This document shows positions 24,537 through 59,692 of a stretch of DNA of 64,000 nucleotides, piece by piece. Position numbers and translations under genes: made by a program. Source of the stretch: Pochonia chlamydosporia 170 (taxonomy: Eukaryota > Ascomycota > Sordariomycetes > Hypocreales > Clavicipitaceae); the NCBI RefSeq assembly GCF_001653235.2, contig NW_019154050.1:124001-188000 (forward strand), given 5' to 3'. Each line of letters begins with the position of its first letter. Within the stretch, counting starts at the first letter, position 1. The notes below the pieces were generated by a model. It did no database searches. It was not told where the DNA came from and was given only the letters and a program-made list of their open reading frames with translations.

Positions 24537-25549
24537 GGATACCTTAGTACAAACCAAGGTCGCTCCTTTTTGCCGCCGATACTACTCTTATCAAGCGTGG
24601 GTCCAGGTTGTTGTGAATACCGTTGAGGCTCGAGATTGGACAACTAGCCGTGGATCAATTGAGAGATCACGTGTATCAGAATACGTTTGTCATTGTTCGA
24701 ATTAGATTAAATGTTCGTTCTCTACTACAATGTTTCCTTCTCTTGTACCCAAGGTTGAAAGCCACTTGTTACGATCCCAACTCGTAGGGATGGGCTGGCT
24801 GCGTAAGCCACCCCGCGGCTACCACCTAGAGCCGCACAACCTTAAATGGTCGACCGGAGCATCTGGGTCAAGGTTGAGGACCCTGATCCGTGTAACAAGA
24901 TCGCGCCTTGAAGCGTGGTCCAAGTAAAAATATCACGATGAAAAAGGCGATCCACAGCAGTATATAGGTAACCCCAAAAGTTTCCTCTCCCAGATAGTTA
25001 CTAGTCCTTAAGAGTGCGGCAGCAGCTTTAGCGAGAACGCGAGAGAATTTTGACCGGACAAAACCAAGGGTTGATCATTGCGGCGAGAGCCGATTGCTCA
25101 AGATATCCCGCTGACGGGTGAGGGCCTTGACAGAGAGCGCCTTTGAGCTGATGAAATGCTGGATGAGCTTTTGAAAATATCTGGGATATGTACATTAGTT
25201 TAGCTCAGCACATCCTGTGCCCCTTTAGGGGACCTGAGCGACCAAAGTCGCTGGAAGGAAAATACAATCAATCAATCAATCAATCGATATCGTCAAATAT
25301 ACTGACCTACAACGGGCTATCCAACAGAGTCAAGTCAAGCCCAACGCCGCAGACGTTTACACAAATCAGGCATGGCTATATGAATGGCAATGGTAATGGT
25401 AATGTATACGCCCGGAGGGATCAACCCTATAGGGCCTCAACGCTGCATCTAATTATATTTCCGTCAACTCTCCTCCTACATCTACAGGGGTACCTACCTT
25501 GTAGACAGACAGTGACGTAGAGAAATAAACATCTTCACATTAAGTAAAC
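24537..25549. other. spacer with simple repeat and possible LINE end
   Basis: No gene recognised. A short CAAT repeat lies near 25267-25285. At 25385-25440 a GGTAAT repeat precedes CGCCCGGAGGGATCAACCC, a motif shared with 47712-47753. This looks like the tail of a Tad-type LINE on the minus strand, or alternatively the leader of the ORF1 that follows. Confidence 0.35.
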
Positions 25550-27244
25550 TTGCAAAGACATCCCCAGCGGTGCTGCGCTGCCATGGCCATGGTTATCTCC
25601 CAACCAGCCACGCCAGAGCGTAGCGCTGGGGCTCAGCTTGACCAGCAGTACCCGGATAGCGTCAACTTCAGAGCTCGCCAACAGCTCCTGAAAACAGGCC
25701 CTCCAGTAACCCTGCAGCCATTTCAACCGACCAGCAGCCCAACCCGTAGCCTTACAGCATACGACAGGGACAGAGGACACCGCCGCAATAGACGACTGGG
25801 CAAAGGCACCCAAGACAGCACAACCAACAGGTTTGCAGCCCTTGCAGAAGAGGATGACGCCACAGAAACGCCTACCCCAGTTTTCGATCTGGAAGCTGAG
25901 ACGGAAGAAATCATCAAGACACAGAAGGAGAGACTTGACATACGCGCTAAGGTCCTCAGAACCTACGCAGAAGCAATAACAGCCTGCACGCGAAAATTCA
26001 CCACGGGTTACGGACTACATATTGCCAATGAGTTTCAGAACACCCTCCTCCGACATTGGAACCAGGTTGTACGCGCAGAAGAACCGCTCATACCAGAAAA
26101 TAAGAACAGCCCCGCTCCAAGCTCACTCACAGGGACAAACAAAGCTACGCCGCCAGCGCCGGACTCCAGAGAAAACACCAGAACCGACAAGTTGGTGAGC
26201 TTCGACAACATCGCGGAAAATGTCTCACGCCAGGCACCAGGGGATGTGCACGTGCAACCCCACCGCCGCCAAAACACAACTATTGCGGATCGCACCGATC
26301 GCAGGGTCCTTCTCCGCTTGAAGAGTGGCTCCTCCTTCTTCGAGAAGGGCTTACAGATCCGCCTTGCACTAAAGGACAAGCTCGCTATTGCATCCCAGGA
26401 CATCCAAGACATCAAGCCAACAAATACAGGATGGGCAATTGTGGCCCGGAACGAGAAAATTCAGCAGCTCATCCTGGAAAAGCAGAACGAATGGGGCCTA
26501 TGTATCGACCTAGATATTGCAGAGAAACAAATCCCATGGCACACCTACCTGATCAAGAACTTCCCCAAGACTATCCACTCTTGGGACGGCACCCTTCTGG
26601 ACTTCGAGACAACGATTGAAGAAGAGATTGAAGCCCAAACAGGGCAAAAGCCAGAACGATGGCATGTCTCACAAAAGCCCAATAATGAGGATCCGACCAG
26701 AGCAACACTGGTCATCTCATTCCTTAAGCCGCTGAACAGCAACTTCCGGCTACTCGGACAGGGAAACTACTCCTTTAAACTCACCAAACCAAAGAAACTG
26801 TCTCAGTGCACCCACTGTTGGAACTTTCACCCGCCAACTCGCTGCACCGCTACAAAAGTCTGTGTTCGCTGTGGCATCAAGGATAATGCGCACAGCGCTG
26901 ACAGGTGCGACAATACGACAAAATGCGCGAACTGCTGTGGCGCACATGAAGCCAACTACGAGAACTGCTACGCCCGTCCACAGAAACTTCGCGGCAATTT
27001 CCAGAAACTCTCAAAGACTCAGCTTATCTACGCCAGGCAACTAGGACAAGAAGACTTCAAACGAAAGAACAATACACAGCAAACTGACAGTGACCAACCC
27101 CCCCTTGCTGAGGAGGGTGATGAAGACGCCCGCCCGCTACAGGATGCCGAGATGAGCGGCACAGAGCCAATTCAGACAACCCAGGCCCCAGAAACACACT
27201 CAGTAAATATTGTTGATCACGAAGAGAGAGAAGTAGGTACCCCA
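25550..27244 (+). pseudogene. Tad-type LINE ORF1 (gag-like), 5' part
   Basis: The 565-codon frame (likely start MAMVISQPATPE at 25583) is the gag-like first ORF of a Tad-clade non-LTR retrotransposon. A central RNA-binding-like region (RRVLLRLKSGSSFFEKGLQIR; IPWHTYLIKNFPKTI) is followed by zinc knuckles (CTHCWNFHPPTRC, CVRCGIKDNAHSADRC, CANCCGAHEANYENC). The frame is cut at 27244 by the hAT element. Its C-terminal continuation lies in inverted orientation at 34472-34936, with the same 8-bp target sequence at each break. ORF2 (endonuclease and reverse transcriptase) is absent from the window. Confidence 0.85.
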
Positions 27245-30128
27245 CAGTGTGGTAAATAATATGGCAATACAACAATATACCGCGGTACATACCATATAAT
27301 ATGCACCTTTCTGATATTGTAACAATACAATACGCGGTCTGCGAAACCCTCGCAATACCATATGAGGTTCGCGATATTGTCACAATACAATATGAGACAA
27401 TTCATATTGGCAATATATTGTTTATATTGTTTGGTTCAGCCAAGGTAAGATTTAGTCGTTTTGCTCATAGTTACATAGAAGAAAACACGTAATGGACATC
27501 AACTTAACAATTGTATCGGGTAGGGCCGTTGACCTGCGCATGGCTGACACAAATAACGCCACCAAATGAAGGTGTCGCCAGAAGCCCCTGAGTGCCGAGT
27601 ATGTGCCAAGCTAGAGCTCGCCAGATCGCTAGCAGCTTTCAATTCCCCCTTTCATCGATGCAATCAAGTGGTTAGTTTCTTGGCAGGCTTACTGCGAAAA
27701 TGCGCCCGGTGCGTCTATAAAAATCAATGCCTCAACAACGCCTGCATTTTTTGCAAACGGCGCAACGGAGAGGTTCGCCAATATCCGACGACCTTTCGGG
27801 GCCTTCTAGCCAACAGCTACATGACCCGGAGGAGAGCCAAACCTCTCAATGTCAATCGTCGCAACCTCGCACGGCATCTGCGTCCTCTTGCGCGAAGCCA
27901 AGAACGTCGTGGGTCTTCTCTCATATGCCAGACGAGGAGACAGAGACTAGGTACTACAATCAAAGGACTGGAAAAGAGGAATGGCGCTGCAAGTACTGTG
28001 AGAAAACATATTCCTGTTCTGGTGGAACTGGAGCTCCGGCCAAGCACCTAACTGACCCTCCTCCTGACGGTCACGGTCTCCCAAAAGGCGCTCCACGGAC
28101 AGCTAAAATCAGAACCATACAAACTATTCTCGAACAAGCTCGTCTTACGGCTGAAGAAAATGCCCGAAAACGTCGTCGGCTCAACGATCAATACGGAGAC
28201 TCGATCGACCCGGACCAGCTCGAAGTGTTGTACGTAAGGTTTATTACCGCCTGTTCTCTTCCATTTCGGCTTGTGGAATGCCCAGAATTCCGAGCCCTAT
28301 TGGCCTACATCAATGCCGACATCGATACTTGGCTTCCAGACACGCACCAAACTGTCAAGACCTGGATTATGCGGCAGTATGAAGATCAGAAGGAGAAGGT
28401 CAAGCAGCGCATACAGTCCGCAAAGTCAAGGATTCACATCAGCTGCGACCTTTGGACTTCTCCCAACTCTTTGGCAATCTTAGGCGTAGTTGCTCACTAT
28501 GTCACGGAAGACTGCAAGCTGGAACACCACACTTTGGCCTTAAAAGACATCGACAGTGAGCATGATGGTTCTCACCTCGCCGCGGCAATCATGGAAGTGG
28601 TTGAAGACTGGGGTTTTGCTTCCAAACTTGGATATTTCGTGATGGACAATGCAAGCAATAACGACACAATGATGAAGTCCCTTTCTCTTGGTCGGTACGA
28701 CTCACTACTTCTTCCGAGCGCTGCTAACATTTATAGCCCTTCTACGCCAATTTGACATTCAATATGATTCCAAATCTCACCGACTCCGCTGCCAAGGCCA
28801 TATTATTAACCTTGCCGCCAAATCCTTCCTCTTCGTTACCGATAATGAGAAGCTCGACCACGAAGATTCCGATCTGCACAATGTGACACTAAAGCAGATT
28901 GAGACGTGGCGGCGAAAAGGTCCTCTTAAGCTTCACAACTTTGTCGTGTACATTCAACGAAGTGTTCAGCGCAGCCAAAAGTTTATGGCTATTAGCCATA
29001 ACCGCAAGCTTGCGAGAGACAATGACACAAGGTGGAGTTCGTGGTACACCATGCTGCAAGCGGCCTTAAGTCTTAAGGACGCCGTTGACGGTTATTTCAA
29101 CAAATGGATGGAAGAAGACTGCGCTGGTGACGAGCTCTCTTCAGAAGACTGGATCATCCTAGAGAAGATAAAATTTTTCTTGGAGAAGCTCAAAATGACG
29201 ACCAAGGCTCTGGAATCATCATTTGCAACTCTCGATAATGTCCTCTTGGCTATGGACTTCGTGTTGGCACAATTCGAAGCAGGAAAAGAGGCATATACTG
29301 ATGATCCGATTATGGCACCAATGTATAACTCAGGCTGGGCGAAATTGGATAAGTACTATCGCCTTACTGACGAATCGCCTGCCTATGTTGCAGCGATTGT
29401 GCTCCACCCTTCGCATAAGTGGCACTACATACACGAGAACTGGAAGCCAGAGTGGGTTGAGTCGTCAAAGAAGTTGATAGAGGCGCTGTGGGGTGAATAC
29501 AAACCCGTGGGATCACCTCCTCTGTCCGAGGTCCCGCGGGCGACTACAAACGAGTTCTTGAAATGGAGGAACAAACATCTACAACCAGCACTTATCACGG
29601 ATGAGTACGAGCATTATTGTAAGTCTGAACGGGTCTATGGGTTCACAAGCGCCCTTACATGGTGGTTAGAGGAGACGCAGCAGAAGACGTATCCTAACTT
29701 TAGCAAAATGGCTGTGGATATGCTGTCAATCCCGGCAATGTCTGCAGAGCCTGAAAGGCTCTTCTCTGGGGCAAAGATAACCATCACGGATCGTCGAAAC
29801 CGGATGGGGAGCGATGTAATTGAAGCATTAGAATGTCTAAAGTCCTGGTTTGGGATACGAGACTTTTAAGGCACAATAATTTAGTTAGTTCACGGGCTGT
29901 TGAATAATACCTTCACGGTCACGTGCAATAAATGGGATATATTGTCGTATTGTCAATATATTGGGTTCCGGGCAATACAATACAATATGGATCAATGTTA
30001 TATTGCGCAATACAATATGAATCATTTCCATATTACGCAATACAATATGTATCACTTGGCAATACAATAATATTGCGAGGGGGTCCATATTGCCAATATA
30101 CGTATTGTTTGTATTATTTACCACACTG
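27245..30128 (+). mobile_element. hAT family A element, copy A
   Basis: 2,884 bp bounded by CAGTGTGGTAAATAAT and ATTATTTACCACACTG. Both ends carry many CAATACAATATG-type subterminal repeats. The element looks identical, in inverse orientation, to 34945-37828: every reading frame is mirrored at the same offset. The left 8-mer is GTACCCCA and the right 8-mer is GCGACACC, so they do not form a target duplication. The partner of GTACCCCA flanks copy B. Confidence 0.92.
27727..29869 (+). CDS. hAT transposase, apparently intact (copy A)
   Basis: Two exons, 27727-28690 and 28737-29869, separated by a 46-nt intron (GTCGGT...TTATAG with GCTAAC branch-like sequence), give 698 residues. The N-terminal BED finger (WRCKYCEKTYSCSGG...KHL) lies near residues 85-110. 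Core motifs are ISCDLWTSPNSLAILGVVAHY and GYFVMDNASNNDTMM, followed by the dimerisation block LSIPAMSAEPERLFSGAKITITDRRNRMG. Compared with copy C one Gly codon is absent at RRKGPLKLHN; otherwise no lesion is visible. Both terminal repeats are present, so this copy may be autonomous. It is identical at protein level to copy B, which indicates very recent duplication, gene conversion or assembly duplication. Confidence 0.9.
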
Positions 30129-30440
30129 GCGACACCATTCTTTCCACTCTGCTTTATGTTTCTTTTGAACATGCTCCTTCGCATTGCCTGTATAGGCATT
30201 GCTCCAGATCGGCTTTATTTCCTGATTCTCACAAGAGATACAATAGTGCAAAATCTTCTTGTGCCGCTTTGAACCAATTTTCTGGATAACATGAGTCTGC
30301 TCAGAGCCTATAGGGAGTCGAAATAGAGTCCAAATGTTCATCTGATGAGGAGCAGCCTTTGTAGAGATTTCTGAAGGCGCCTTAGATGACATGGCAGGTG
30401 TAGAAGGGACCAGAAATAATGAAGATGCAGTCGCCGACAT
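30129..30440 (-). pseudogene. N-terminal BED-finger fragment of another hAT
   Basis: The frame starts MSATASSLFLVPSTPAM and contains HYCISC...NAKEHVQKKHKAEW, a BED-type finger. It is cut at the terminus of copy A at 30128 after KEWC; the last residues of the open frame come from the hAT terminus. The continuation was not found beyond copy B at 37829, so the gene was broken by more than a simple insertion. Confidence 0.6.
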
Positions 30441-30549
30441 AGTAGCAATTGGTTCTGATCGAGATTAAGGATGGGGTGATACTATCGAGATGGTTGTTTC
30501 TTGGGATTTCCTCTAAGATCTGGCCATTCAGGGGGGGTTCACATCCATA

Positions 30550-30680
30550 GATAAGATTAAGGGGGCCAATCAGAGCGCGTTGTACAACAGTTGTACAACA
30601 GCCAACAAAGTGTAGTTATTGTACAACAGATTTTGATCTATACTACACAACGCGTTGTACGTACAACTTTGCCCAAGTAT
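30550..30680. repeat. cluster of GTTGTACAAC palindromes
   Basis: GTTGTACAAC, itself a perfect palindrome, occurs twice in tandem near 30579-30600. Close relatives follow (ATTGTACAAC near 30616; CGTTGTACGTACAAC near 30652). Outer parts GCGCGTTGTAC / CAACGCGTTGTAC partly mirror each other. It lies upstream of the BED fragment, so it may be the terminal or subterminal binding-site array of that transposon. Confidence 0.4.
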
Positions 30681-30780
30681 GCCGTATGTCATCATCGGAT
30701 GATTTTTTATGCCCCAAGGAGAATGCATCCTTGACACCCTCGGCTATTATAAGTATATTTGTGTACATGAGATTCTCACT

Positions 30781-31092
30781 TTATATCACGAGCTTCCGTT
30801 TGGCGTGATCAAGAAAAGACACAGTGCTACGGTCGACTAGGCGAATGCATTTGTAAAGTTGCTTAACAAATACAGCATGAAATTCTCTATTAATGAGGCG
30901 AAGACCGGAAAGACGTCTTCGATTATTTATCTGGAAGGAGTGTGAAATATGGGGGGCTGATTCGGTGACGATGCGTAGACGTAGCGTCGACATCCCGACG
31001 ATTCGTTCCTGGATGGCAAACTGCCTAGCCATCGGATCCAGAAGTCCCCTCGTCGTCTGTTCAAACTCACAATATAGTAGGAACCAACACAC
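30781..31092 (-). pseudogene. possible F-box-type fragment
   Basis: The 103-codon frame ends with LRLINREFHAVFVKQLYKCIRLVD, similar in pattern to the segment after the F-box in fungal F-box proteins (L-x-NREF...LF). No start domain or continuation was found. It could be a chance frame; confidence is low. Confidence 0.25.
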
Positions 31093-31134
31093 TCACCATA
31101 TTGGACGAAACCCTCTTTCCTAACATCAAAAGGC

Positions 31135-33559
31135 TCACGTCATATCGTATTTCTTATTCTGTGCGTCTCGCTCAACAGACGAAATACTGTGTGTCCGCCG
31201 CCGAGTTTCTGAGATTCCGTTATCGTCATCCTGATGTTGCTGCTTATAACCCCACTGCGAAGGGGATGTCAATGGCAGGTCGCGTTCGTTGTGCGATGAA
31301 TTTTCAGTTCGACGACGCTTAAATCGGGCTTTATTGCGCTTGATTCCCTGACCGTTTATGTGTGTCAGGATCGCAATCGTCACCCAGACGAGCGTGATGG
31401 TTGGCATCACCCATGGTGAGTTCAAGAAGTAGTCAACTCTCTCCTCGTTGAACCATAGAGTCGCAACTAGGCTGGTACCTATCGCCAAGAGGAATATAAT
31501 TATGAGGCGCAAGATGGGCCACAGTTTGAATTGCGTTGTCCGCGCAACAATAGTTAGCATGATCATGAAAATAATGGTGCAGCCGGCAGCAATGTAGCCA
31601 TAAGCAAACTTTTTTTACAGGTACGCATTAGCAGTTGCGACGCAGTATACCTCGGGGACAAGACGTCTGGTTTGACATACCACTAATCTGTACCGTCGCC
31701 ATGTTTTGTCTTGCACTAAAACCTGGTATCCCCCATCTTTTATGTTCTTCGCTGCTGCGGGGTCTTTTTTGGAGATGTCATCGTCCAGATTGATGCCAAA
31801 TGCACCATATAGAGCATTTGCCATTGTGAAATATATTGTGACAACAGTGTTACCCAGCGTTTCGAAAGCTCTTCGCATATCCGGAGAGAGATCAGCATCA
31901 GAGTCAACTGTCTGGTTTGCAACCGCGGGCCAAATTGAGTCAGGTATTTGGGTAATGTTCTTTAGTGCCTCGTTGACAGTGTCCAGTGAGCTTAAAATTT
32001 TTGGTGGGTAGTCGCTGAAAAAGCTCTGAACTGAGCTATTCAAGGAATTTTGAACGGCTTCGCTCGTCAAGGCGCGAGCATCATCAGCCGGGTCTGCAAT
32101 AATGCCGATGCGGTTTATCTGGCTGACAATCTTGGACCACAAGAGAAACTGCGTGAACCCTTGCATGAATAAGACAACGGAGAGATGGAATGGTAGGTGA
32201 AGGCATGTCCAAATTTGTTGACGAAGAGCTGGGAGATAGAAAGACGACCTTAACCAGTCAAAGTAGACCAAGAACACCAAGTACATCGTGGTTACCGCCG
32301 CTGTTAACAGGCTAATGGTCAAAGAATCTTGAAATCGTCGTCAGCTCCGTTTTTACATGCGGTACTATTCCAGGCAAAAGTCAGACTTACCCCAGGCACC
32401 TGGGTTTTTGACAATTGTTACGACTTCTCTGGCCAATTGCTGAATGCCTTCACCTAAGAACATAACAGTCAAAAGTGACATACGCCTCATCATATGAGTA
32501 GGGGTGAGACTAGCGGCCGGGGATAGATTCGAGATAAAGACGGTCGCAATAGCTTCGGCACCTGCAATGAAATACCACGCCATAAACACACGACTTTGTT
32601 TTCCGCTCGAGAAGCGGAAAGTGATGCCTAGATAGACGGCTGACGCGGCAGCATGAACCGCTATCTGCAGATGCAGAACCTTGTGCATCTTTTTGTATCT
32701 TCTTACGTGCCATAGCGTCGATGCGTATTCAACTGCTAGGCATGCTCGTGAGACGCAGAGAATGAGCGCTGAGATGGTTAGCTCGTTGCTGCAATATGTT
32801 GATGTAATATGGCAGCATTTGACGAAGGGTGTGCTTACACATAGCGCGCATCGTGTCAAGGTCTTGGTCGTTTGGATTGAACTTTGGCGCAACAACAACA
32901 AAGCCTACAAGCACACCAAGTTGAATGGCCCTGGTAAGTCGAGCTAGTGTGTTGATGACTGGTTAGTAATTCTGTACTATTTTGAAACCATTTGAGCGAA
33001 ACCGGGAATACAGCCGTACAAAAGATGCTGTCGGTGACATAGCGCACATCAAACATTGCGACCTGAAACCAGGTTAACCATAGCAAGCTGTGGTTGCGAA
33101 GAGTTAGTCATTTATGTTCACCAAAATTGGCTGTACGTGTTAGATTAGAGTCCACGAACCAGAAATAGCCAACCGATGCTTTGAACTTGCTGTGGCCGGT
33201 GACTTGTTGCGTATCGGAGAAGACATTGTAGTTGGCAGCAAAGAAAAGATCATAAAAAATTTCCAGCAACGTTGGTTCCTCGTACTATTCACACAAGGGC
33301 ATGAAATGATTAGCTACCGCAAGCGCCCTGTTTGCTGGGAGTATTAAAGATTGCCACTCACCCGTTGGAACTGGGGAAGATCTTCTCCATGGAATTGACG
33401 GTCCTCGTCGTCGGACGAGTTGCGGCTGTCGTCGATGGAATGCCGAGTTTGAGCATGCCTCACATCTCCATCTGGTTTGTTTGCCCGACGTATGTGCGGG
33501 CTGCTGAGGATGCGAAGCTTCTTGTGCTGATGCCGAGTTTGGTGGGCGTCTTCCGACAT
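31135..33559 (-). CDS. LtrA-family (low temperature requirement A) multipass membrane protein
   Basis: A multi-exon gene read on the minus strand from MSEDAHQTRHQHKK (33559) to a stop at 31135. Exon 1 ends at 33362 with a GTGAGT donor, and exon 2 starts at 33285 with YEEPTLLEIFYDLFFAANYNVF, the hallmark start of the LtrA domain. Later exons give LLWLTWFQVAMFDVRYVTDSIF, VLVGFVVVAPKFNPND, RMSLLTVMFLGEGIQQLAREVV and, after a further intron, several more hydrophobic segments (YGYIAAGCTIIFMIML). The C-terminal tail is polar and probably cytoplasmic. About six exons with short introns are needed. LtrA proteins in fungi have no firmly known substrate. This is the only clear host gene in the segment between the inverted hAT copies. 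Confidence 0.75.
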
Positions 33560-34471
33560 TTCGTTTGATGCCCTCTGCGCCCTTATAAATTGCACAATCC
33601 TCCGGTCGAGTTGGGAGTTCGATTTTGTTCTGGCCGGGTGGTGCCTATGGATACCTTATACCTACGTAGAGGTGGGCGAGATGGACAGCAGCAACCACCT
33701 TTATTGTTTGATGTAGGGAAGGAAAAGAATAAAATTAAGATTCAACGTTTTGGTGACTCGCTGCCGTGTCAGTACCCCGTGGCACCACAGCACTGAACCA
33801 ACAGCCACATCCCCAATTGTCAAACCAATCATGACGCAGTACGATGAATGTCGCCGGATTGGCGAACGGGTGATGCACTGATCTGCAAATGTACCAGACG
33901 CTGTACCATGATCTGACCAAATAGTACAAAAGGCTACATGGAAATGACGCAGGCGGGTCCCGACAGGCTCTCTCTTGCACAGTTAGAGGATGGCGTGAAA
34001 TAAGCTTTGCCCATTTGGACTAGACTTCGGAATGTTACCGAAAAGGTTAGTGTACTGCAGACGACGCGGATTTCCATGAAACGAAGGTCCGGACATGGCT
34101 GACACTTTACAAGCAATATGCACAGGGCTTGTGTGGATTGCGTTGGGTTGAACATGCTCCGCTTATCAGGCTGTGCGAAAAGCCATGGCGTACCTATTGC
34201 AATTAATTCGCGAGAGGAAAACCGCGGCATTCGTAATTGCCCAAGTACTGGGATGGAACACACTCGACGATCGAGAGGGCCAAACCTCACCACCAATTGG
34301 TTTCGCACTGACCGATGACTCTGACTCAGCTGTTACCCGAATCAGCAAACGCTCTCTGGCGAGCAATGCTGGCAGAAGATGAGCATCTACCCCTTGTGCA
34401 GTCCGTGAAGTCGGGATAGTGTACATGTGCTTAGTCTATGTTCCCAATGGCGACCGGTCACCGAAAGTTCT
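33560..34471. other. upstream region of the LtrA-like gene
   Basis: No recognised gene. The DNA next to 33559 should contain the LtrA promoter. Frames on both strands up to 124 codons overlap one another and show no motif. Confidence 0.35.
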
Positions 34472-34936
34472 TCAGAGATGGAACATGTAAGGGCCAACAA
34501 GGTACTCTAATTTGGAGCTGGTCACACTGGATATATCCAAATAGCAGAGTTGATATCGATATATCGTATCCAAATACGCTGGTCTGAGTGGCTCTATGTT
34601 GTCAGTTCGGGGTTGAGGTGGAAACTGCTTTTTAATGGTGAAGTACCGGTCCCTGGTTGTGCTGGTACTGGCCGTAGAATTTTGCTTGGTGACTGTGTGC
34701 GATGTACCCTTCCGGGTGATATAGAAATGGTGTTTGGGATAGGAGTGTTGGTCCTGTCTTGTGTTGGTTCCTGTTGGGTACGACTGTGCTGGTGGAGGTA
34801 GTGCTTCCTCAATCTCTTGTTCCTCTGCTTCCTCTTCCTCTTCCTCTCCTTCTTCTTCTTCCTCTTCCTCTGCTTCCTCCTCCCCTGCTGCTTCTTCTTC
34901 GGTTTCTTCATCGTCCTTTTCATTTTCCCTCACTCC
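34472..34936 (-). pseudogene. Tad-type LINE ORF1, 3' part, inverted
   Basis: This minus-strand frame starts right at the hAT copy B target site and runs through an extreme Glu-rich tract (EEAAGEEEAEEEEEEEGEEE) to a stop at 34472. If the target sequence shared with 27237-27244 is taken once, its frame continues the ORF1 frame that stops abruptly at 27244 (both are in the phase set by the GTACCCCA site). The strongly acidic tail matches the acidic trend at the end of the 5' part. The final ~40 residues may already be non-LINE sequence. Confidence 0.7.
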
Positions 34937-34944
34937 TGGGGTAC

Positions 34945-37828
34945 CAGTGTGGTAAATAATACAAACAATACGTATATTGGCAATATGGACCCCCTCGCAA
35001 TATTATTGTATTGCCAAGTGATACATATTGTATTGCGTAATATGGAAATGATTCATATTGTATTGCGCAATATAACATTGATCCATATTGTATTGTATTG
35101 CCCGGAACCCAATATATTGACAATACGACAATATATCCCATTTATTGCACGTGACCGTGAAGGTATTATTCAACAGCCCGTGAACTAACTAAATTATTGT
35201 GCCTTAAAAGTCTCGTATCCCAAACCAGGACTTTAGACATTCTAATGCTTCAATTACATCGCTCCCCATCCGGTTTCGACGATCCGTGATGGTTATCTTT
35301 GCCCCAGAGAAGAGCCTTTCAGGCTCTGCAGACATTGCCGGGATTGACAGCATATCCACAGCCATTTTGCTAAAGTTAGGATACGTCTTCTGCTGCGTCT
35401 CCTCTAACCACCATGTAAGGGCGCTTGTGAACCCATAGACCCGTTCAGACTTACAATAATGCTCGTACTCATCCGTGATAAGTGCTGGTTGTAGATGTTT
35501 GTTCCTCCATTTCAAGAACTCGTTTGTAGTCGCCCGCGGGACCTCGGACAGAGGAGGTGATCCCACGGGTTTGTATTCACCCCACAGCGCCTCTATCAAC
35601 TTCTTTGACGACTCAACCCACTCTGGCTTCCAGTTCTCGTGTATGTAGTGCCACTTATGCGAAGGGTGGAGCACAATCGCTGCAACATAGGCAGGCGATT
35701 CGTCAGTAAGGCGATAGTACTTATCCAATTTCGCCCAGCCTGAGTTATACATTGGTGCCATAATCGGATCATCAGTATATGCCTCTTTTCCTGCTTCGAA
35801 TTGTGCCAACACGAAGTCCATAGCCAAGAGGACATTATCGAGAGTTGCAAATGATGATTCCAGAGCCTTGGTCGTCATTTTGAGCTTCTCCAAGAAAAAT
35901 TTTATCTTCTCTAGGATGATCCAGTCTTCTGAAGAGAGCTCGTCACCAGCGCAGTCTTCTTCCATCCATTTGTTGAAATAACCGTCAACGGCGTCCTTAA
36001 GACTTAAGGCCGCTTGCAGCATGGTGTACCACGAACTCCACCTTGTGTCATTGTCTCTCGCAAGCTTGCGGTTATGGCTAATAGCCATAAACTTTTGGCT
36101 GCGCTGAACACTTCGTTGAATGTACACGACAAAGTTGTGAAGCTTAAGAGGACCTTTTCGCCGCCACGTCTCAATCTGCTTTAGTGTCACATTGTGCAGA
36201 TCGGAATCTTCGTGGTCGAGCTTCTCATTATCGGTAACGAAGAGGAAGGATTTGGCGGCAAGGTTAATAATATGGCCTTGGCAGCGGAGTCGGTGAGATT
36301 TGGAATCATATTGAATGTCAAATTGGCGTAGAAGGGCTATAAATGTTAGCAGCGCTCGGAAGAAGTAGTGAGTCGTACCGACCAAGAGAAAGGGACTTCA
36401 TCATTGTGTCGTTATTGCTTGCATTGTCCATCACGAAATATCCAAGTTTGGAAGCAAAACCCCAGTCTTCAACCACTTCCATGATTGCCGCGGCGAGGTG
36501 AGAACCATCATGCTCACTGTCGATGTCTTTTAAGGCCAAAGTGTGGTGTTCCAGCTTGCAGTCTTCCGTGACATAGTGAGCAACTACGCCTAAGATTGCC
36601 AAAGAGTTGGGAGAAGTCCAAAGGTCGCAGCTGATGTGAATCCTTGACTTTGCGGACTGTATGCGCTGCTTGACCTTCTCCTTCTGATCTTCATACTGCC
36701 GCATAATCCAGGTCTTGACAGTTTGGTGCGTGTCTGGAAGCCAAGTATCGATGTCGGCATTGATGTAGGCCAATAGGGCTCGGAATTCTGGGCATTCCAC
36801 AAGCCGAAATGGAAGAGAACAGGCGGTAATAAACCTTACGTACAACACTTCGAGCTGGTCCGGGTCGATCGAGTCTCCGTATTGATCGTTGAGCCGACGA
36901 CGTTTTCGGGCATTTTCTTCAGCCGTAAGACGAGCTTGTTCGAGAATAGTTTGTATGGTTCTGATTTTAGCTGTCCGTGGAGCGCCTTTTGGGAGACCGT
37001 GACCGTCAGGAGGAGGGTCAGTTAGGTGCTTGGCCGGAGCTCCAGTTCCACCAGAACAGGAATATGTTTTCTCACAGTACTTGCAGCGCCATTCCTCTTT
37101 TCCAGTCCTTTGATTGTAGTACCTAGTCTCTGTCTCCTCGTCTGGCATATGAGAGAAGACCCACGACGTTCTTGGCTTCGCGCAAGAGGACGCAGATGCC
37201 GTGCGAGGTTGCGACGATTGACATTGAGAGGTTTGGCTCTCCTCCGGGTCATGTAGCTGTTGGCTAGAAGGCCCCGAAAGGTCGTCGGATATTGGCGAAC
37301 CTCTCCGTTGCGCCGTTTGCAAAAAATGCAGGCGTTGTTGAGGCATTGATTTTTATAGACGCACCGGGCGCATTTTCGCAGTAAGCCTGCCAAGAAACTA
37401 ACCACTTGATTGCATCGATGAAAGGGGGAATTGAAAGCTGCTAGCGATCTGGCGAGCTCTAGCTTGGCACATACTCGGCACTCAGGGGCTTCTGGCGACA
37501 CCTTCATTTGGTGGCGTTATTTGTGTCAGCCATGCGCAGGTCAACGGCCCTACCCGATACAATTGTTAAGTTGATGTCCATTACGTGTTTTCTTCTATGT
37601 AACTATGAGCAAAACGACTAAATCTTACCTTGGCTGAACCAAACAATATAAACAATATATTGCCAATATGAATTGTCTCATATTGTATTGTGACAATATC
37701 GCGAACCTCATATGGTATTGCGAGGGTTTCGCAGACCGCGTATTGTATTGTTACAATATCAGAAAGGTGCATATTATATGGTATGTACCGCGGTATATTG
37801 TTGTATTGCCATATTATTTACCACACTG
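34945..37828 (-). mobile_element. hAT family A element, copy B
   Basis: 2,884 bp, the exact inverse counterpart of copy A as far as I can see. The outer 8-mers are TGGGGTAC (34937-34944), which is the reverse complement of the 8-mer left of copy A, and GCTGCTTG (37829-37836). It therefore lacks its own target duplication. Together with copy A it forms an inverted repeat with a 4,816-bp spacer. Confidence 0.92.
35204..37346 (-). CDS. hAT transposase, apparently intact (copy B)
   Basis: Exons 37346-36383 and 36336-35204 encode the same 698-residue protein as copy A, with the same 46-nt intron and no lesion. Motifs are those given for copy A. Either copy could supply transposase for the deleted relatives in this window (8.1 kb). 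Identical sequence in opposite orientation means short reads cannot be placed uniquely here. Confidence 0.9.
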
Positions 37829-38040
37829 GCTGCTTGCAGCAAATCTAGGCTTCACTTCTAGGCTGCGGCCGGTCCGACAAAGTATAAAATAGATCCTTCA
37901 TTCCATCCTTAGAAAATGATGAGCGTTCGGTTGCCCCAAAAATCTCCTCCCGGCCTCTAGTGGTTTAGAGCCGAGGGAAGAACCAATTCGTTTAGACTCT
38001 AGTTCTTGGGCCAGCTGCCGACAGGTCACACCTTTGTTAA

Positions 38041-38848
38041 TCAGTTCTCGTGAAGTCTGCTACTCGGACCGAGTGGTGAAGAACGTCGTCGAGCTCGTCT
38101 TGAGACCTGGGCATCTCGTAGCATTTCGAGCAGCGGATTTTCAGGTTTCAGCGAACTGTCCTCGGAATAGGATGTGCTACATAGGCGAGAACCTGAGGCA
38201 GAGGGACCGCGAAGCTTTCGTGGAGTCCGGCAGCGAATTACCCCTGGCCGGCCTTTGCTGGCGCCAGCAATATATCCACAATCGGTGAAGTCGTATTTCA
38301 TGGGCCAGGACAGGTCGGGCTCGACGTCAAGGACGACGGACGACATGATGGATGGGACGTTTCGGGGCACGAACAACGGTTCGATTGGGCTTGGGCAAGT
38401 GGAGGTAGCGGAGCATTGGTTCCCAAGCTCAACGATTGGCCGTATACAAAGGGCATTGCCAATTTCGTGAATACGTAGCCTGTTTGGGTCAACCGGCGCG
38501 AGGAAGCTGCGATCATCGGGCTGACGGTGGAGAAATGGGTCATTGGGAAAACTGTACCGATGGCCGAGGTGGCGTCGTCCATGTTCCCATTCGCATGTCG
38601 AGATTCTGGTGCGTGAGGATGTGCTGGCTGCCAAGACCTCGTCCACCCCGACATTACCGTCCGCTGGAGCGATGGTAGCTGCTTGTTGTGAGGACCTGCA
38701 CATCGCTGAGAAATCGGCCGAGAGTTGTCCAAAATATCTCTTTGTCGTAGCGAAGTTGGTGGCCTGCGAGGATGTATGGTTTGGGCGGGAGTTGAGGGGT
38801 CCGTTCCACAGCTAAATACCTCAAGCGCAAGTGGTGGGACACAACCAC
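38041..38848 (-). pseudogene. unrecognised protein-coding remnant
   Basis: Two overlapping minus-strand frames look coding. The first, 38848-38654, contains RTPQLPPKPYILAGHQLRYDKEIFWTTLGRFLSDVQ. The second is 220 codons, 38703-38041, with SSVVLDVEPDLSWPMKYDFTDCGYIAGASKG. A frameshift or small intron near 38690 could join them. I recognise no family. The sequence starts just beyond hAT copy B, so the gene's 5' part may have been displaced. Confidence 0.35.
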
Positions 38849-39164
38849 TGCACGTTGTGTCCCTTGTCACTATTAGGGAGGGCTAAACGGCTTGCATGCC
38901 TTGCAACACGGCCTGTTTAGTATGCGAGTCGGTGACTCGTTGCAACGTGTGGTAAAGGGAGGCGAAGTTGGCAGTTGTGGACCTCATACAATCATGATAA
39001 TCTACGAAAGATCATACCCATCGAAATATTTGAAGGAACAATTTTAACCTTTGTTGTAATAGCCGACGTGAGCGATGCGCTTCGGAACTGATTTGACCAC
39101 GCCAACTCTGTCCCTTTCCAGAAACATTACCTTGGCCGTATTGTTCGTGCTGATCCATGGGCCA

Positions 39165-39542
39165 TTATACGTCGCGAAAAAAGCAGACCACAACCAGCTT
39201 TGAATCTTCGCATAAGGCTCGCTGATAGTCGTATCTACGCGTAAAACGCGTACAGACCTCTTTGTGGCCTTTGACGAAGTTTGAAGCCCATCGTGGTACT
39301 CCGCGGGGCGCGTCGCGATCGGCGAGCATTCGATTCGCCATATCTTGCACACCATTAAGCCGGAAAGGAAATGATCGCGAATCTAGGTCAAGGATATATT
39401 CCACGATTGTTGATTCCTCTAGGTTTGTAAGTTTTTCAGAGGGCGGCACAGTAGCACGTCGTGCGGCGATTCGCTTAACACGAGCATTAAGCATGCTGAT
39501 TGCCGCGGGACTTTGCCCGTGTCCTCTATAAAAGATGCACAC
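39165..39542 (-). pseudogene. N-terminal fragment of pogo transposase
   Basis: The frame includes EKLTNLEESTIVEYILDLDSRSFPFRLNGVQDMANRMLADRDAP and FVKGHKEVCTRFTRRYDYQRALCEDSK. This closely matches the DNA-binding part of the pogo element at 52-54 kb. It breaks off after CEDSK and no catalytic domain follows. A dead fragment. Confidence 0.7.
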
Positions 39543-39986
39543 AAATGATTTCTCATCCAGGACTCAGAATTGACCCCGGACGAGCCACCGAGCAGTGGCA
39601 TACATACGCGCCTTGCCGATACGAGTTATGCAGTTAAGTTGGCCAGATGTTTCACCATTAGGCAGCAACGCGGTTCAGCTTTTTGGGGTGCGGTTGGGCC
39701 TTCGTTGATCGGGACAATACGGCGGGATATTAGTACCGCAACTGCGAGAGGGCCAAACCACAAGTGCCACACATAACTGTCGCGCTATGCGATTCCAATG
39801 ATGTTCACCTTGTCACATGGAGTAAAAGACCACTGATCGAATAAATTTAATTTTTTTTTCCCTTTTTCCCTTCCTTTCTCCAAACTGTTTTAATGGTCCT
39901 TTAAATGACAGCATTTATTTGACAATAGCATATTGTGCTTGCTTTGAATGAGCGACCTGATCTTGACAATATTGCCAATAACTATA
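39543..39986. other. spacer without recognised features
   Basis: No coding frame or repeat recognised. A T-rich run near 39843-39880 is present. The DNA ends at the solo LTR. Confidence 0.35.
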
Positions 39987-40201
39987 TGTTGGAAGCGCAA
40001 GGCTTCTATTCGGGTGATAATTATCACGGGATTTGGGGTACTTGTAACTGGTTTTTTGATGCTTGTTGAATTCATCTAGCTATAGATAACGTGCCCCTGT
40101 GTTGGTGTTGAGGCCTCCTCACGTGAGGTCTGTTTCAGCCACCGTTTGAAGCCATTCGCAGGCTGCTGGCTCCGCCGCCAAAGACGGCGGTGGAAGTAAC
40201 A
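39987..40201 (+). repeat. solo LTR, 215 bp (copy 1)
   Basis: It begins TGTTGGAAGCGCAAGG and ends GGAAGTAACA, with a CCGCCGCC...GGCGGTGG hairpin near the 3' end. It matches 51466-51680 over the full length with few differences. The flanking 5-mers differ (CTATA, ATATG), so the target duplication has decayed or been recombined. No internal retrotransposon sequence is near. Confidence 0.65.
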
Positions 40202-40228
40202 ATATGTGTCAAGTCCCGTGTCTAAATT

Positions 40229-40492
40229 GTCGCGTTTAGCGGTTCCAATATAATTTACTACACGGAAGTACGACTCTTGATGATCTGAATTGCTGTCCGT
40301 TCCTGTTCTATCCTGGCCAGAGGGTTTCATATCATTTATCTCAGCAAAGAAGCATTATTACCAGTCTCCTAATTATTTTCAGGTGGCTGGCCGGCCTCTT
40401 CACCCCCTGATATGTATGATTTTATGACATCCAGCAATTACTCCAAGTCTGCTTGTTCAATCAACAGAGGCAGCCTTATCCAACAGTTGTAT
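40229..40492 (+). repeat. dispersed repeat, copy 1
   Basis: It is similar over ~265 bp to 55111-55387. Shared blocks include GCAAAGAAGCATTATT, GATTTTATGACATCCAGCAA and CTGCTTGTTCAATCAACAGA. A short piece of the same repeat occurs at 20937-20980 next to the deleted Fot transposase. Identity unknown; probably part of a transposon. Confidence 0.5.
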
Positions 40493-40820
40493 AGGTTCTA
40501 GGTCATGTAACGGCACGCTACTTGGTGAAATGGCGATCGAGCACTCCGGTAGAACCTCCGTACCGAAACTTTACGTTTGAACAGGTTGTCTGGAATGCGG
40601 TGTACCCCATGAAAATTGTTGGCAATCAAAATGACATGTAATCGTATGGATTTGCCATGTATATCTATGTACCAGTGTAACAGTGATCCACTTAACTAAT
40701 CTTTGGTGTTTCCGATTAGTTCCAGTCAGTGAGATTGTGGTGGTCATAGCTTGGCACTCAAGGAGATAGCCCGAGCACGTCCCAAAATCGAGGCTGGCGA
40801 AATTTGTAAATCCCAGTTAA

Positions 40821-42659
40821 CGTCGGGGACCCATTAACCGGCCAGACCCCTCAACCGGCCACACTTTTTCGTCTTTTCAACACCAAATGGCCAGCATTCC
40901 AACCGCGATTTCTCGTGCAATTTAACAACAATTTAAATTCTGTTTTAATTTTTGGATTCCCAATGCCAAACTACACGGAAGATGATATTCAAAACGCACT
41001 ATCGGCCGTGCGCAGTGGCCTGTCTGTCAGAAAAGCTGCAGCACAGTCGGGGATACCAAGGACAACTATTCAAGATCGAATGTCCGGCTCCCATACGCGA
41101 ATTGATGCATATGAACCGCGTCAGCGGCTATCGCAGAAGGATGAAAGTGCCCTGGTTACTTGGATAGTAGCCCAGTCGTCATTAAATGTGCCAATTACAC
41201 ATCGACAACTCTACCTCTTTGTCTCATATATCCTAGCCAAGGGAGGAGACCATCGCCCTTTGGGGAAGAATTGGGTAAAAGGATTCATACGTCGGCATCC
41301 TGAAATAGCAACTAGAAAAGGCAAGAAGATGGATTCCTGTCGCATTAATGGGGCTTCTGCTGATACAATCAAGAGCTTCTTTTCAAGGGTCCAGCTACCA
41401 GCAGTACAAGGAATCCCAGCGCGAAATCAATATAATATGGATGAGACTGGTGTTCACGAGGGTCAAGGGACTAATAGTCTTATCATTGGGAGTGCAGAAA
41501 TTCGAGTAATTATTCGGAAGCAGCCTGGGTCGCGGTCTTGGACTACAATTATCGAATGCATCTCAGCAGACGGCAGGACACTTAGTCCTCTGGTGATATT
41601 CAAAGGAGCAAGCGTTCAACAGCAATGGTTTCCCGATAAATGCGATAAATATCATAAATGGCACTTTACAACATCACCAAATGGCTGGACTTCTGATGAA
41701 ATTGGGCTTGCGTGGCTGCGCGAGGTCTTTATCCCGGAAACAGCACCAACTAACCCGAAAGAGCCACGGCTACTAATTGTAGATGGTCACGGAAGTCATA
41801 CAACCGATGATTTTATGCTGGAATGCTTCAAAAATAAAATATACCTTCTTTTTCTGCCAGAGCATTCATCTCACGTTTTACAGCCGCTTGACGTTGGTGT
41901 CTTTAGCTCAGTCAAAGCCAGCTATCGCACTTTCATTATGGACCTTCAATTATCAACACCCTTGCTTTCAATAAACAAAATAACCTTCCTTGACTGTTAT
42001 GACAAAGCTCGGAATACCGGAATTACCAAAGGAAACATTCTTTCAGGATGGCGGGCCACCGGAATTTATCCCACTAATATGAGCCGACCTCTCCTGTCAA
42101 AATCCCTCAAATCAGCGACTCAACCGCTCAAGGAAATAACGCAAGAGACACCACAAATGTGTACAAAGCAGCAAAATGACCTACTACAGACCCCACAGCG
42201 CGGTAGTCAAATTTTTGACTATATTCCCCAACTTCTTAGACCCAAAGACATAGACCCAACAGCCCGTCAGCTATTTCGTAAGATTCGGAAGGGAATTGAC
42301 GATAAGAACATGCAGCTTGTTGAAGCCGAACAGAAGATTCAATCACTACAGCGGCAGATTGATCATCAGAAGCCAAGAAAGAAGCGAAAAGTCATACATG
42401 ATCCTAATAGAAAATTCGCCAATATCAAAGACGTTGAAAAGACCCGGCAGCGTCTTCAAAGACGGCCTCCAGGACCCTCTATTGCAGACGGGGTCAATTT
42501 TGAGTCTCTATGTAATGAATGGAAGCTGGACAGCTAGAAAACACCAAATATTACTATTTTCATCTATCATGACCGTTGAAATCGAAGTTCCAATATGATG
42601 CCATTTGGTCCCACGGGTGGCCGGTTGGGGGGTCTGGCCGGTTAATGGGTCCCCGACGT
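40821..42659 (+). mobile_element. complete Fot1/pogo-type element
   Basis: 1,839 bp flanked by TA (40819-40820 and 42660-42661). The 43-bp inverted termini (40821-40863 and 42617-42659) start ACGTCGGGGACCCATTAACC and differ at one position. The element carries one long open frame and looks complete. Confidence 0.9.
40963..42537 (+). CDS. Fot1/pogo transposase, apparently intact
   Basis: 524 residues from MPNYTEDDIQNALSAV; an in-frame Met 16 codons upstream (40915) is less likely because it precedes the conserved helix-turn-helix. Order: psq-type HTH (VRKAAAQSGIPRTTIQDR), CENP-B-type HTH (QRLSQKDESALVTWI...GKNWVKGFIRRHPE), DDE core with YNMDETGVHEG, LLIVDGHGSHTTDDF and VLQPLDVGVF, then a coiled-coil-like basic tail (EAEQKIQSLQRQIDHQKPRKKRKV). 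All catalytic Asp are present and no lesion is visible, so the element may be active. It acts in the nucleus, cutting at its TIRs and inserting at TA. Confidence 0.9.
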   Translation: MPNYTEDDIQNALSAVRSGLSVRKAAAQSGIPRTTIQDRMSGSHTRIDAYEPRQRLSQKDESALVTWIVAQSSLNVPITHRQLYLFVSYILAKGGDHRPLGKNWVKGFIRRHPEIATRKGKKMDSCRINGASADTIKSFFSRVQLPAVQGIPARNQYNMDETGVHEGQGTNSLIIGSAEIRVIIRKQPGSRSWTTIIECISADGRTLSPLVIFKGASVQQQWFPDKCDKYHKWHFTTSPNGWTSDEIGLAWLREVFIPETAPTNPKEPRLLIVDGHGSHTTDDFMLECFKNKIYLLFLPEHSSHVLQPLDVGVFSSVKASYRTFIMDLQLSTPLLSINKITFLDCYDKARNTGITKGNILSGWRATGIYPTNMSRPLLSKSLKSATQPLKEITQETPQMCTKQQNDLLQTPQRGSQIFDYIPQLLRPKDIDPTARQLFRKIRKGIDDKNMQLVEAEQKIQSLQRQIDHQKPRKKRKVIHDPNRKFANIKDVEKTRQRLQRRPPGPSIADGVNFESLCNEWKLDS

Positions 42660-42661
42660 TA

Positions 42662-56802: not shown

Positions 56803-59692
56803 CAGTGTGGTAAATAGTATGACAATAAAACAATATATCGCAATACATACCATATAATATGCATTTTCTGATATCGTGGCAATACAATATGCGGTTTCCT
56901 ATATCGTGACAATATGATATCAGTCGGCTCATATTGGCAATATATTGTTTATATTGGTTGGTAAGTATGGTTTGCGTAAAACGCACTTATCTTCCGACAG
57001 TCATGTCAACGAACATATGTAATAGTGTGTATTTACCATCTCGTGGCCATAGATAAAACATAATAGACAATCAAAAACGATGCCGGGTAGGACGCCTGAT
57101 CCGTGCCTGCCAGCTACGAATCTGCGATGTTAATTACGCCACCAAATGAAAGGCGCCGCCACAAACCTCTGAGTGTTACCTTAACTATGTGCCCAACCAA
57201 CTGGCTCTTTGAGGACTTTGAGCTCTTCTTTTCTCTAATGCGATCAATTTGCTGTTCTCATGCACGATTCTGGCGAAAATATGCCTGGTGCATCCTGCGA
57301 CAATGCCTCAACAGCGCCTGCATTTTGTTCAAACACTGCAACGGAAACGTTCAACACCATCCAATGACCTTTTGGCGCGTTCCAGCCAACAACCATTGGA
57401 CACAGACGAGAGCTACGCCTCTCAATGCCAGCCTTCGCCACCTCGCACGGGCTCTGTAGCCTCTTGCGCCAAGCCAAGAACATCATGGATCTTCTCTCAC
57501 ATGCCAGACGAGGATATCGAAACGAGATATTACAATCAACGGACCAGGAAAGAAGAATGGCGCTGCAAGTATTGTGAGAAGACATATTCTTGTTCCGGTG
57601 GAACTGCGGCTCCAACTAAGCACCTAACGGATCCTCCTCCGGACGGTCATGGCCTCCCAAAGGGCGCCCCACGATCGGCCAAAGTAAGAACCATACGAAC
57701 CATTCTCGAACAAGCTCGTCTTACGGCCGAGGAAAATGTCCGAAAACGCCGTCGACTCAACAATCATTACGGAGACTCGGTCGACCCGGACCAGCTTGAA
57801 GTGTTGTACGTACGGTTTATTGCCGCCTGTTCTCTTCCATTTCGGCTTGTGGAATGCGCAGAATTCCGTGCACTACTATGCTACGTTAATGCCGATATTG
57901 ATACTTGGCTTCCAGACACACACCAAACTATCAAGAAATGGATTATGCGCCAGTATGAAGATCAGAAGGAGAAGGTCAAGCAGCGCATTCAGTCGGCAAA
58001 GTCGAGGATTCATATCAGCTGCGATCTCTGGACCTCTCCCAACTCCCTGGCAATCTTGGGCGTAGTTGCTCACTATGTAACGGAAGACGGCAAGCTGGAA
58101 CACCATACTTTGGCCCTAAAGGACATCGACGGTGAGCATGATGGTTCTCATCTCGCTGCGGCAATTATGGAAGTGGTTGAAGATTGGGGCTTTGCTTCTA
58201 AGTTGGGCTATTTCGTCATGGATAATGCAACCAATAACGACACAATGATGAAGTCGCTTTCTCTTGGTCGGTACACTCACAATTCACAATTTCTTTCGAA
58301 CGCCGCTAACATGTATACATGATGTATAGCCCTTCTACGTCAATTTGACATACAGTATGATCCCAAATCTCACCGACTCCGCTGCCAAGGTCATATTATC
58401 AACCTAGCCGCCAAATCCTTCCTCTTCGTTACCGATAACGAGACGCTCGAACACGAAGATTCCAGTCTGCACAATGTGACACTGAAACAGATTGAGGCGT
58501 GGCGGCGGAAAGGCCCACTTGGTAAGCTTCACAACTTTGCCGTTTACATTCAGCGAAGTGTTCAGCGCAGCCAGAAGTTTATGGCTATTAGCCATAACCG
58601 CAGGCTTGCGCGAGACAACGACACAAGATGGAATTCGTGGTATACCATGCTGCGAGCGGCCTTGAATCTTAGAGAAGCAATTGATGGCTATTTCAACAAA
58701 TGGGTAGAAGCAGATTGCGCTGGAGACAGGCTTTCAGCAGAGGACTGGACCATCCTCGAGAAGATCGAATCTTTTTTAGAGAAGCTCAAAATGACGACCA
58801 AGGCTCTGGAGTCATCGTTTGCAACTCTCGACCATGTTCTGCTGGCTATGGACTTTGTGTTGGCACAATTCGAAGCAGGAAAAGAGGCATATACTGACGA
58901 TCCGATCATGGCACCAATGTATAACTCGGGCTGGGCGAAATTGGATAAGTACTATCGCCTTACTGACGAATCGCCTGCCTATGTCGCAGCTATAGTTCTT
59001 CATCCCTCGCATAAATGGCATTACATACACGAGAACTGGAAGAGGGAATGGATTGAGTCATCGGAGAAGTTGATTGAGGCGCTGTGGGGTGAATACAAAC
59101 CCGTGGAATCACTTCCTCTCGCCGAGGCACCATCCACGACCCACGAACGAGTTCTTGAAATGGCGAAACAAGCATCTACAACCGGCACCTATCAGGGACG
59201 AGTATGAGCATTATTGTAGGTCTGAGCGGGTGTATGGGTTTACCAGTGCCCTTACATGGTGGGTAGAGGAGACGCAGCAAAAGACCTACCCTAACTTGAG
59301 CAAAATGGCCGTGGACATACTGTCAATTCCTGCAATGGCTGCCGAGCCTGAAAGGCTCTTCTCTGGGGCAAAGATAACCATTACAGATCGTCGAAATCGC
59401 ATGGGGAGTGATGTAGTTGAAGCATTAGAGTGTTTGAAGTCATGGTTTGGGATATCAGAGTTTCAAAGCACTATGTTGTAGTTAGTTACGACAGTTGAAT
59501 TATATCCTTAATGGTCACGTGCTATACGGGATATACTGTCATATTGCCAATATGTTGGATTCTTGGCAATACAATACAATATGGACCAATGGCATATTGC
59601 GTAATACAATATGCGCCGCTTGACAATACAATAATATTGCGAGGGGGTCCATATTGCCAATATACGTATTGTTTATATTATTTACCACACTG
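56803..59692 (+). mobile_element. hAT family A element, copy C, with exact target duplication
   Basis: 2,890 bp from CAGTGTGGTAAATAGT to ATTATTTACCACACTG. An exact 8-bp duplication TGCACAAA lies at 56795-56802 and 59693-59700. It is clearly related to copies A and B but diverged throughout. Confidence 0.93.
57303..59481 (+). pseudogene. hAT transposase with one frameshift (copy C)
   Basis: It starts MPQQRLHFVQTLQRKR. Exon 1 ends at 58266, an intron spans 58267-58329, and exon 2 continues from 58330. BED finger (WRCKYCEKTYSCSGG), ISCDLWTSPNSLAILGVVAHY, YFVMDNATNN and the dimerisation block LSIPAMAAEPERLFSGAKITITDRRNRMG are all present. One extra base in 59139-59146 (ACGACCCACGAACG where copy A has GCGACTACAAACG) shifts the frame before NEFLKWRNKHLQ. 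The intron is 17 nt longer than in copies A and B. Inactive as it stands. Confidence 0.85.

What the first reader, a model, noticed from the sequence alone, without database searches (positions are those of the whole stretch)
27237..37836. Apparently perfect 2,884-bp inverted hAT pair with a swapped target duplication and a split LINE gene
Copies A (27245-30128) and B (34945-37828) mirror each other at every frame coordinate (sums equal 65073). GTACCCCA left of A has its partner, inverted, left of B (TGGGGTAC). The Tad ORF1 frame that stops at 27244 resumes in phase on the minus strand at 34936. So the 4.8-kb segment with the LtrA gene was inverted relative to the state when hAT A inserted into the LINE. 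The alternative is that the assembler flipped a segment between identical repeats. Both outcomes matter: a live inversion switch, or a wrong reference.
Basis: seen in the sequence. Interest (0 to 1): 0.8.

Follow-up and report, generated by a model that had tools for sequence, protein, structure and literature searches.

The report
Segment flipped between twin jumping genes
In a fungus that parasitises nematode eggs, two identical copies of a jumping gene face each other across a 4.8-kb segment that sits backwards relative to how the first copy inserted; this is either an ordinary flip caused by the twin copies or an orientation error in the published genome, and the raw long reads could tell which.

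Summary
Arms 27245-30128 and 34945-37828 are identical inverted hAT copies (0 of 2,884 differences). The 8-bp duplication GTACCCCA lies at A's outer 5' end and, inverted, at B's inner 3' end. LINE ORF1 stops at 27244 and resumes in phase at 34936 (minus). All 6 LINE paralogs found keep both halves together; three join at the duplication. So the 4.8-kb island is reversed relative to the state in which A inserted.

Flipping back gives A a normal duplication but not B, whose flanks come from two unrelated sequences. At least one further rearrangement is needed. Alternative transposition fails: the required new duplication matches 3 of 8 bases.

The genome is Pochonia chlamydosporia 170, a hybrid Illumina/PacBio assembly. 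Another insertion of this hAT family is split between contigs C23 and C3, with Ns inside both halves, so the assembler did fail at this repeat. Against that, dispersed identical repeats of the same size are threaded correctly (3 of 3) and no N lies at this site. Real inversion about 0.5; assembly flip about 0.38. No evidence for a working switch.

The parts
25544..27244 (+). LINE ORF1, first part (567 codons counted from the preceding stop), interrupted by hAT A
   Evidence: Open frame; about 96% identical to the C21 paralog, whose adjacent ORF carries endonuclease and RVT_1 domains
27237..27244 (+). Target duplication GTACCCCA, left copy
27245..30128 (+). hAT copy A (2,884 bp, 17-bp terminal inverted repeats)
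   Evidence: transposase C-terminal domain PF05699, E = 3.4e-19
27727..29869 (+). Transposase gene of A; open as 698 aa if a 46-bp GT-AG intron (28691-28736) is assumed
   Evidence: the joint reads as in the paralogous protein P0013
30129..30681 (-). End fragment of a second hAT family ('hAT2'), cut off exactly at the 3' end of A
   Evidence: 73% identical to elements on C1, C12 and C30; homology starts at 30129 in all three
31135..32904 (-). Weakly LtrA-like gene or gene remnant in the inverted island, several open stretches
34588..34936 (-). Continuation of LINE ORF1, in phase; homology to the paralogs ends at about 34588
34937..34944 (-). Target duplication, second copy (TGGGGTAC on the + strand)
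34945..37828 (-). hAT copy B, identical to A, inverted
37829..39283 (+). Repeat flanking the 5' end of B; 94-95% identical to C12:469493-470925, homology starting exactly at 37829

Best explanation
Two identical, inverted, possibly autonomous hAT copies act as inverted repeats around a 4.8-kb island, and homologous (ectopic) recombination between them has reversed the island. Shown from the sequence: A inserted into a LINE with an 8-bp duplication, and the LINE and duplication halves now lie at the outer end of A and the inner end of B, as a flip predicts. Shown: B lacks a duplication in either arrangement. Inferred: B is itself a product of an earlier exchange or deletion involving another copy of this hAT. 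Inferred: the flip exists in the cells rather than only in the assembly. If so, it should be reversible and both orientations may coexist in culture, but that would be passive recombination, not a dedicated switch.
For: Exact inverted arms. Exchanged 8-bp duplication, one of 5 exact matches among 703 end pairs where 0.011 are expected. LINE paralogs continuous across the site and reading frame in phase. Identical-repeat control: hAT2 copies on C1 and C12, 100% identical over 2,886 bp, plus a C30 copy identical over the 1,208 bp compared, keep matching 8-bp duplications in 3 of 3 cases, so the assembly threaded other exact or near-exact 2.9-kb repeats correctly. The stretch 660-62767 contains no N, whereas the split hAT insertion of this family (C3/C23) still has Ns inside it.
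Against: Ectopic recombination between two ordinary insertions predicts two exchanged duplications; only one is found. The same hAT family appears to have defeated the assembler elsewhere (C3/C23). An inverted repeat around a short island is harder to orient than repeats dispersed over three contigs, so the hAT2 control is imperfect. No reads, second assembly or other isolate could be examined.
Confidence: 0.5

Rival explanations
1. Assembly flip: in the living strain the island lies the other way (LINE - A - rest of LINE ... hAT2 fragment - B - C12-like repeat). The assembler oriented the island wrongly because only reads or mate pairs longer than about 2.9 kb can tell.
For: The genome was built from Allpaths-LG Illumina scaffolds joined and gap-filled with LoRDEC-corrected PacBio RS reads at ~32x, Canu pieces and manual edits (passages of PMC5773674). 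A hAT insertion of the same family with duplication AGTGAGAA is split between C23:33197 (5' half, ends at 10 Ns) and C3:29141 (3' half, ends at 1 N), which points to this repeat having broken and misplaced contigs. The flipped arrangement gives A a normal duplication and the LINE a normal frame.
Against: No N in or beside A or B. hAT2 repeats of 2.9 kb are threaded correctly in 3 of 3 cases. It does not explain why B lacks a duplication in either orientation.
Confidence: 0.38
2. [quoted passage not shown]
For: Explains at once identical inverted copies, precise element ends, and one old duplication shared between A's 5' end and B's 3' end. Known for Ac/Ds (PMC8225341, passages) and discussed as an alternative for Galileo (PMC2775673, passages).
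Against: It predicts a new 8-bp duplication between A's 3' flank and B's 5' flank. Observed GCGACACC against CAAGCAGC, 3 of 8 bases (flanks). The two flanks also belong to unrelated sequences.
Confidence: 0.07
3. The island arrived by several unrelated rearrangements in a transposon-rich region (hAT-hAT deletions, truncations), and no single flip took place.
For: LINE truncated at 34588, hAT2 truncated at 30129 and B with hybrid flanks all show repeated breakage. 2 of 5 other two-ended copies of this hAT (C1, C11) also lack duplications.
Against: The exact exchanged duplication and the in-phase LINE are explained by one flip.
Confidence: 0.05

Closest known systems
[quoted passage not shown]
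   Same: Two copies of one DNA transposon in opposite orientation at the ends of an inverted segment, with exchanged target duplications
   Different: There both duplications are exchanged, the copies are chimeric and the non-inverted chromosome is known; here one of two is exchanged, the copies are identical so chimerism cannot be seen, the segment is 4.8 kb, and no non-inverted allele could be examined
Maize Ac/fAc alternative-transposition inversions (PMC8225341, passages read)
   Same: hAT element ends precisely at the inversion junctions
   Different: Those carry a new matching 8-bp duplication at the junctions; here that test fails (3 of 8 bases)
Orientation errors of islands between inverted repeats in genome assemblies (general knowledge, recalled)
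   Same: Identical inverted repeats around a short unique island; a split hAT insertion in the same assembly
   Different: No unresolved bases at this site

Membership tests
hAT superfamily DNA transposon (copies A and B) | 8-bp target site duplication | tested here: met
   In-place 8-bp duplications in 3 of the 5 other two-ended family copies (C31, C15:180803, C21); A's is exchanged with B; B's own is absent
hAT superfamily DNA transposon (copies A and B) | Short terminal inverted repeats | tested here: met
   17-bp CAGTGTGGTAAATAATA at both ends of A and B
hAT superfamily DNA transposon (copies A and B) | Transposase with hAT C-terminal dimerisation domain | tested here: met
   PF05699, E = 3.4e-19, 68.9 bits against a cut-off of 21.4
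hAT superfamily DNA transposon (copies A and B) | BED zinc finger and catalytic residues | tested here: inconclusive
   No Pfam match in the first ORF at E 0.001; catalytic residues not aligned
LINE (interrupted element) | ORF2 with endonuclease and reverse transcriptase | tested here: met
   Met in the C21 paralog (PF14529, PF00078); the window copy is truncated before ORF2
Inversion by ectopic recombination between transposon copies | Two homologous copies in opposite orientation at the ends of the segment | tested here: met
Inversion by ectopic recombination between transposon copies | Both target duplications exchanged | tested here: not met
   One pair exchanged; the other two flanks do not match each other or any other of the 38 ends compiled at 7 of 8 or better
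Inversion by ectopic recombination between transposon copies | Non-inverted arrangement in another chromosome | not testable with these tools
   No other isolate or read set available
Alternative (reversed-ends or sister-chromatid) transposition | New 8-bp duplication at the two other junctions | tested here: not met
   GCGACACC against CAAGCAGC, 3 of 8 (flanks)

The most novel reading that the evidence does not exclude
The island flips back and forth in living P. chlamydosporia by recombination between the two identical hAT copies, so a culture is a mixture of both orientations, and the LtrA-like gene and the LINE fragment change neighbours with each flip.
Probability: 0.25. Interest if true: 0.4.

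Novelty: new member of a known kind. Interest (0 to 1): 0.22.

Why it matters
If real, it is a compact, young example in a fungus of transposon-mediated inversion that can be scored by PCR. If an artefact, it marks a specific error in the reference genome of a biocontrol fungus. The duplication test used here (pairing the 8-bp flanks of the hAT ends found across the genome) also points to another probable mis-join, C3/C23. Either way the mechanism is of a known kind.

Tried and rejected
Reversed-ends or sister-chromatid transposition was considered in detail, because it would produce identical inverted copies in one step; rejected as the leading account since the required new duplication is absent.

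'B is an ordinary insertion once the island is flipped back' was rejected. The flanks of B are then a hAT2 fragment (homology to C1, C12 and C30 starting exactly at 30129) and a C12-like repeat (homology starting exactly at 37829). The neighbouring 1,208 bp of those paralogs were searched in the genome. The hAT2 side gave the three identical hAT2 copies and one divergent copy at C1:95k, which is 64.5% identical over 1,368 bp and has no hAT1 copy in the list. The C12 side gave no second copy reaching the last 51 bases before the junction, but only 40 of 84 candidates were scored there, and a copy at 73% identity could have been missed on either side. None of the other hAT ends carries a partner duplication at 7 of 8 or better; ends whose terminus differs at two or more of 17 bases were not sought, apart from C21. 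So the absence of the lost neighbours is likely, not proven.

Left out of the count of two-ended copies: C8, where a 3' end (1200416) and a 5' end (1208687) lie 8.3 kb apart and their flanks do not match, and copies with only one recognisable end.

'B is a gap-filling phantom' was rejected as unlikely, since the flank homologies start exactly at B's terminal bases.

Point-mutation silencing (RIP) as a clue to age: the composite index is negative in 62 of 64 one-kb windows and 0.01 and 0.04 in the other two (24001, 46001); all windows over the arms are negative (reading of the index recalled). Identity of the arms is weak evidence of age in any case, because Illumina-based polishing (Pilon) could have made them identical (inference).

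Led nowhere: protein search with the LtrA-like ORF (23 relatives, 21 without a source name, no genomic context); literature search for inverted-repeat misassembly with PBJelly (2 listings, not read). The Pochonia 170 paper's main text has no occurrence of 'inversion', 'inverted' or 'misassembl'; its supplements could not be looked up. Strain 123 has a PacBio-improved assembly (PMC8817618, passages), but it could not be reached here.

Full report
What is there. The window is C15:124001-188000 of a 44.2-Mb, 49-contig genome. The transposase of the hAT element matches a protein of Pochonia chlamydosporia 170 that lies on a contig of 727,680 bases, the length of C15, and 49 scaffolds / 44.2 Mb is that strain's published assembly (PMC5773674, passages). 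At 27245-30128 and 34945-37828 lie two hAT copies that are exact reverse complements (0 of 2,884 mismatches). They enclose 4.8 kb with a weakly LtrA-like gene or remnant (PF06772, E = 0.016, below cut-off). The two other copies that match end to end are 85-86% identical (C31, C1), and no partial match of appreciable length exceeds 88% (40 of 48 candidates scored; short end matches reach 91%), so A and B form a young pair of their own. The transposase gene reads through as 698 aa if a 46-bp intron is assumed; activity was not tested.

The LINE test. The ORF1 frame ends at 27244 on a codon boundary, and the minus strand from 34936 continues it in phase. The paralogs on C21, C15:404k and C6 are uninterrupted: their alignments to the two window pieces meet at the duplication GTACCCCA, overlapping by 7-9 bases. 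Three further paralogs (C26, C38, C12) have both halves together with 21-60 bases unaligned between. So A inserted into a LINE whose other half is now next to B. That other half is only about 350 bp long: it stops at about 34588, still inside ORF1, where homology to the paralogs ends. An intact ORF1 exists on C21, but the start exactly at the duplication and the shared nearest paralog at similar identity (95.8% and 96.6%) speak against an independent copy.

The duplication test. I compiled 38 ends of this hAT family: 36 with at most one mismatch in the 17-bp terminus plus the two ends of the C21 copy. I compared the 8 bases outside every end with those outside every other end. Five exact pairs were found among 703, with 0.011 expected, and no further pair at 7 of 8. 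Three are ordinary insertions (C31, C15:180803-183692, C21). One is A's 5' end with B's 3' end. One is C23:33197 (5' end) with C3:29141 (3' end). A's 3' flank (GCGACACC) and B's 5' flank (GCTGCTTG) match nothing. Of the other two-ended copies, C1:48778-51586 and C11:571653-574541 also have no matching duplication.

What B is. The A-3' flank, 30129-30681, is the end of a second hAT family, 'hAT2', at 73% identity to elements on C1, C12 and C30; the homology begins exactly at 30129 in all three. The B-5' flank is 94-95% identical to C12:469493-470925, beginning exactly at 37829. Flipping the island back puts B between these two unrelated sequences without a duplication. Exchange, or deletion between directly oriented copies, involving at least one further hAT copy is the simplest account (inference). 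The lost neighbours were not found in the assembly, within the limits (40 of 84 and 4 of 4 candidates scored; a 73% copy could be missed).

Real or artefact. For an artefact: the assembly began as Allpaths-LG Illumina scaffolds, later joined and gap-filled with corrected PacBio RS reads at ~32x, Canu pieces and manual editing. An island between inverted repeats can be oriented only by molecules longer than the repeat. The C23/C3 pair is strong evidence that this family broke the assembly: both half-elements end at Ns inside the hAT, 10 in C23 and 1 in C3, and the halves share an exact duplication; a true translocation there is not excluded. For reality: hAT2 copies on C1 and C12 are 100% identical over 2,886 bp and the C30 copy is identical over the 1,208 bp compared, yet all three keep matching duplications (CCCTGAAC, GGTTGAGG, GGTGTAGG; the boundary was shifted by one or two bases by eye). 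There is also no N anywhere between 660 and 62767. I put the real inversion at 0.5 and the assembly flip at 0.38. That weighting is a judgement, not a measurement.

Mechanism compared with known cases. Galileo inversions in Drosophila show exchanged duplications on both sides (PMC2775673, passages). Maize Ac alternative transposition leaves a new matching duplication at the junctions, and recombination between inverted copies does not (PMC8225341, passages). Here one duplication is exchanged and no new one exists. This fits recombination between inverted copies acting on a B copy that had already been rearranged, and does not fit alternative transposition.

Verdict. The inversion inference holds relative to the ancestral insertion. 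The 'switch' idea is unsupported, and the 'wrong reference' idea is a serious rival that reads can settle.

Noticed in passing
C23:33197 (L049 1501) and C3:29141 (L035 1501), outside the window: Two half-copies of the same hAT family share an exact 8-bp duplication (AGTGAGAA), and each ends at Ns inside the element: one hAT insertion split between two contigs, probably a scaffold mis-join.
   Followed up: partly
C31:24239-27047 and C1:48778-51586 (L022, L023): These two hAT copies differ at 12 positions, all within bases 1192-1434 of 2,809; C33 is identical to C1 over the 1,900 bp it shares. Gene conversion or a chimeric consensus.
   Followed up: no
window 660-1895: 99.9% identical to the sequence on C23 just after its 10-N gap, and it ends at the window's own 100-N gap (560-659).
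   Followed up: no
window 56803-59692: A third full-length copy of the hAT family, 83.5% identical to A over 2.6 kb, with an intact 8-bp duplication TGCACAAA.
   Followed up: yes
window 40818-42661: DNA transposon with a 575-aa open frame (DDE_1, HTH_psq, HTH_Tnp_Tc5) and 45-bp terminal inverted repeats 98% alike; the label pogo/Fot1-like is recalled, not tested.
   Followed up: no
window 27727-29869: The public gene model of the transposase (VFPPC_18547, 627 aa) starts later and splices differently from the 46-bp-intron model, which gives 698 aa and reads across the joint like its paralog.
   Followed up: partly
window 37829-40265: Mosaic region: 37829-39283 matches C12, 38941-40205 matches C23 at 96%, with a degenerate hAT-like terminus at 40249 and one on C23 next to its copy.
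   Followed up: no
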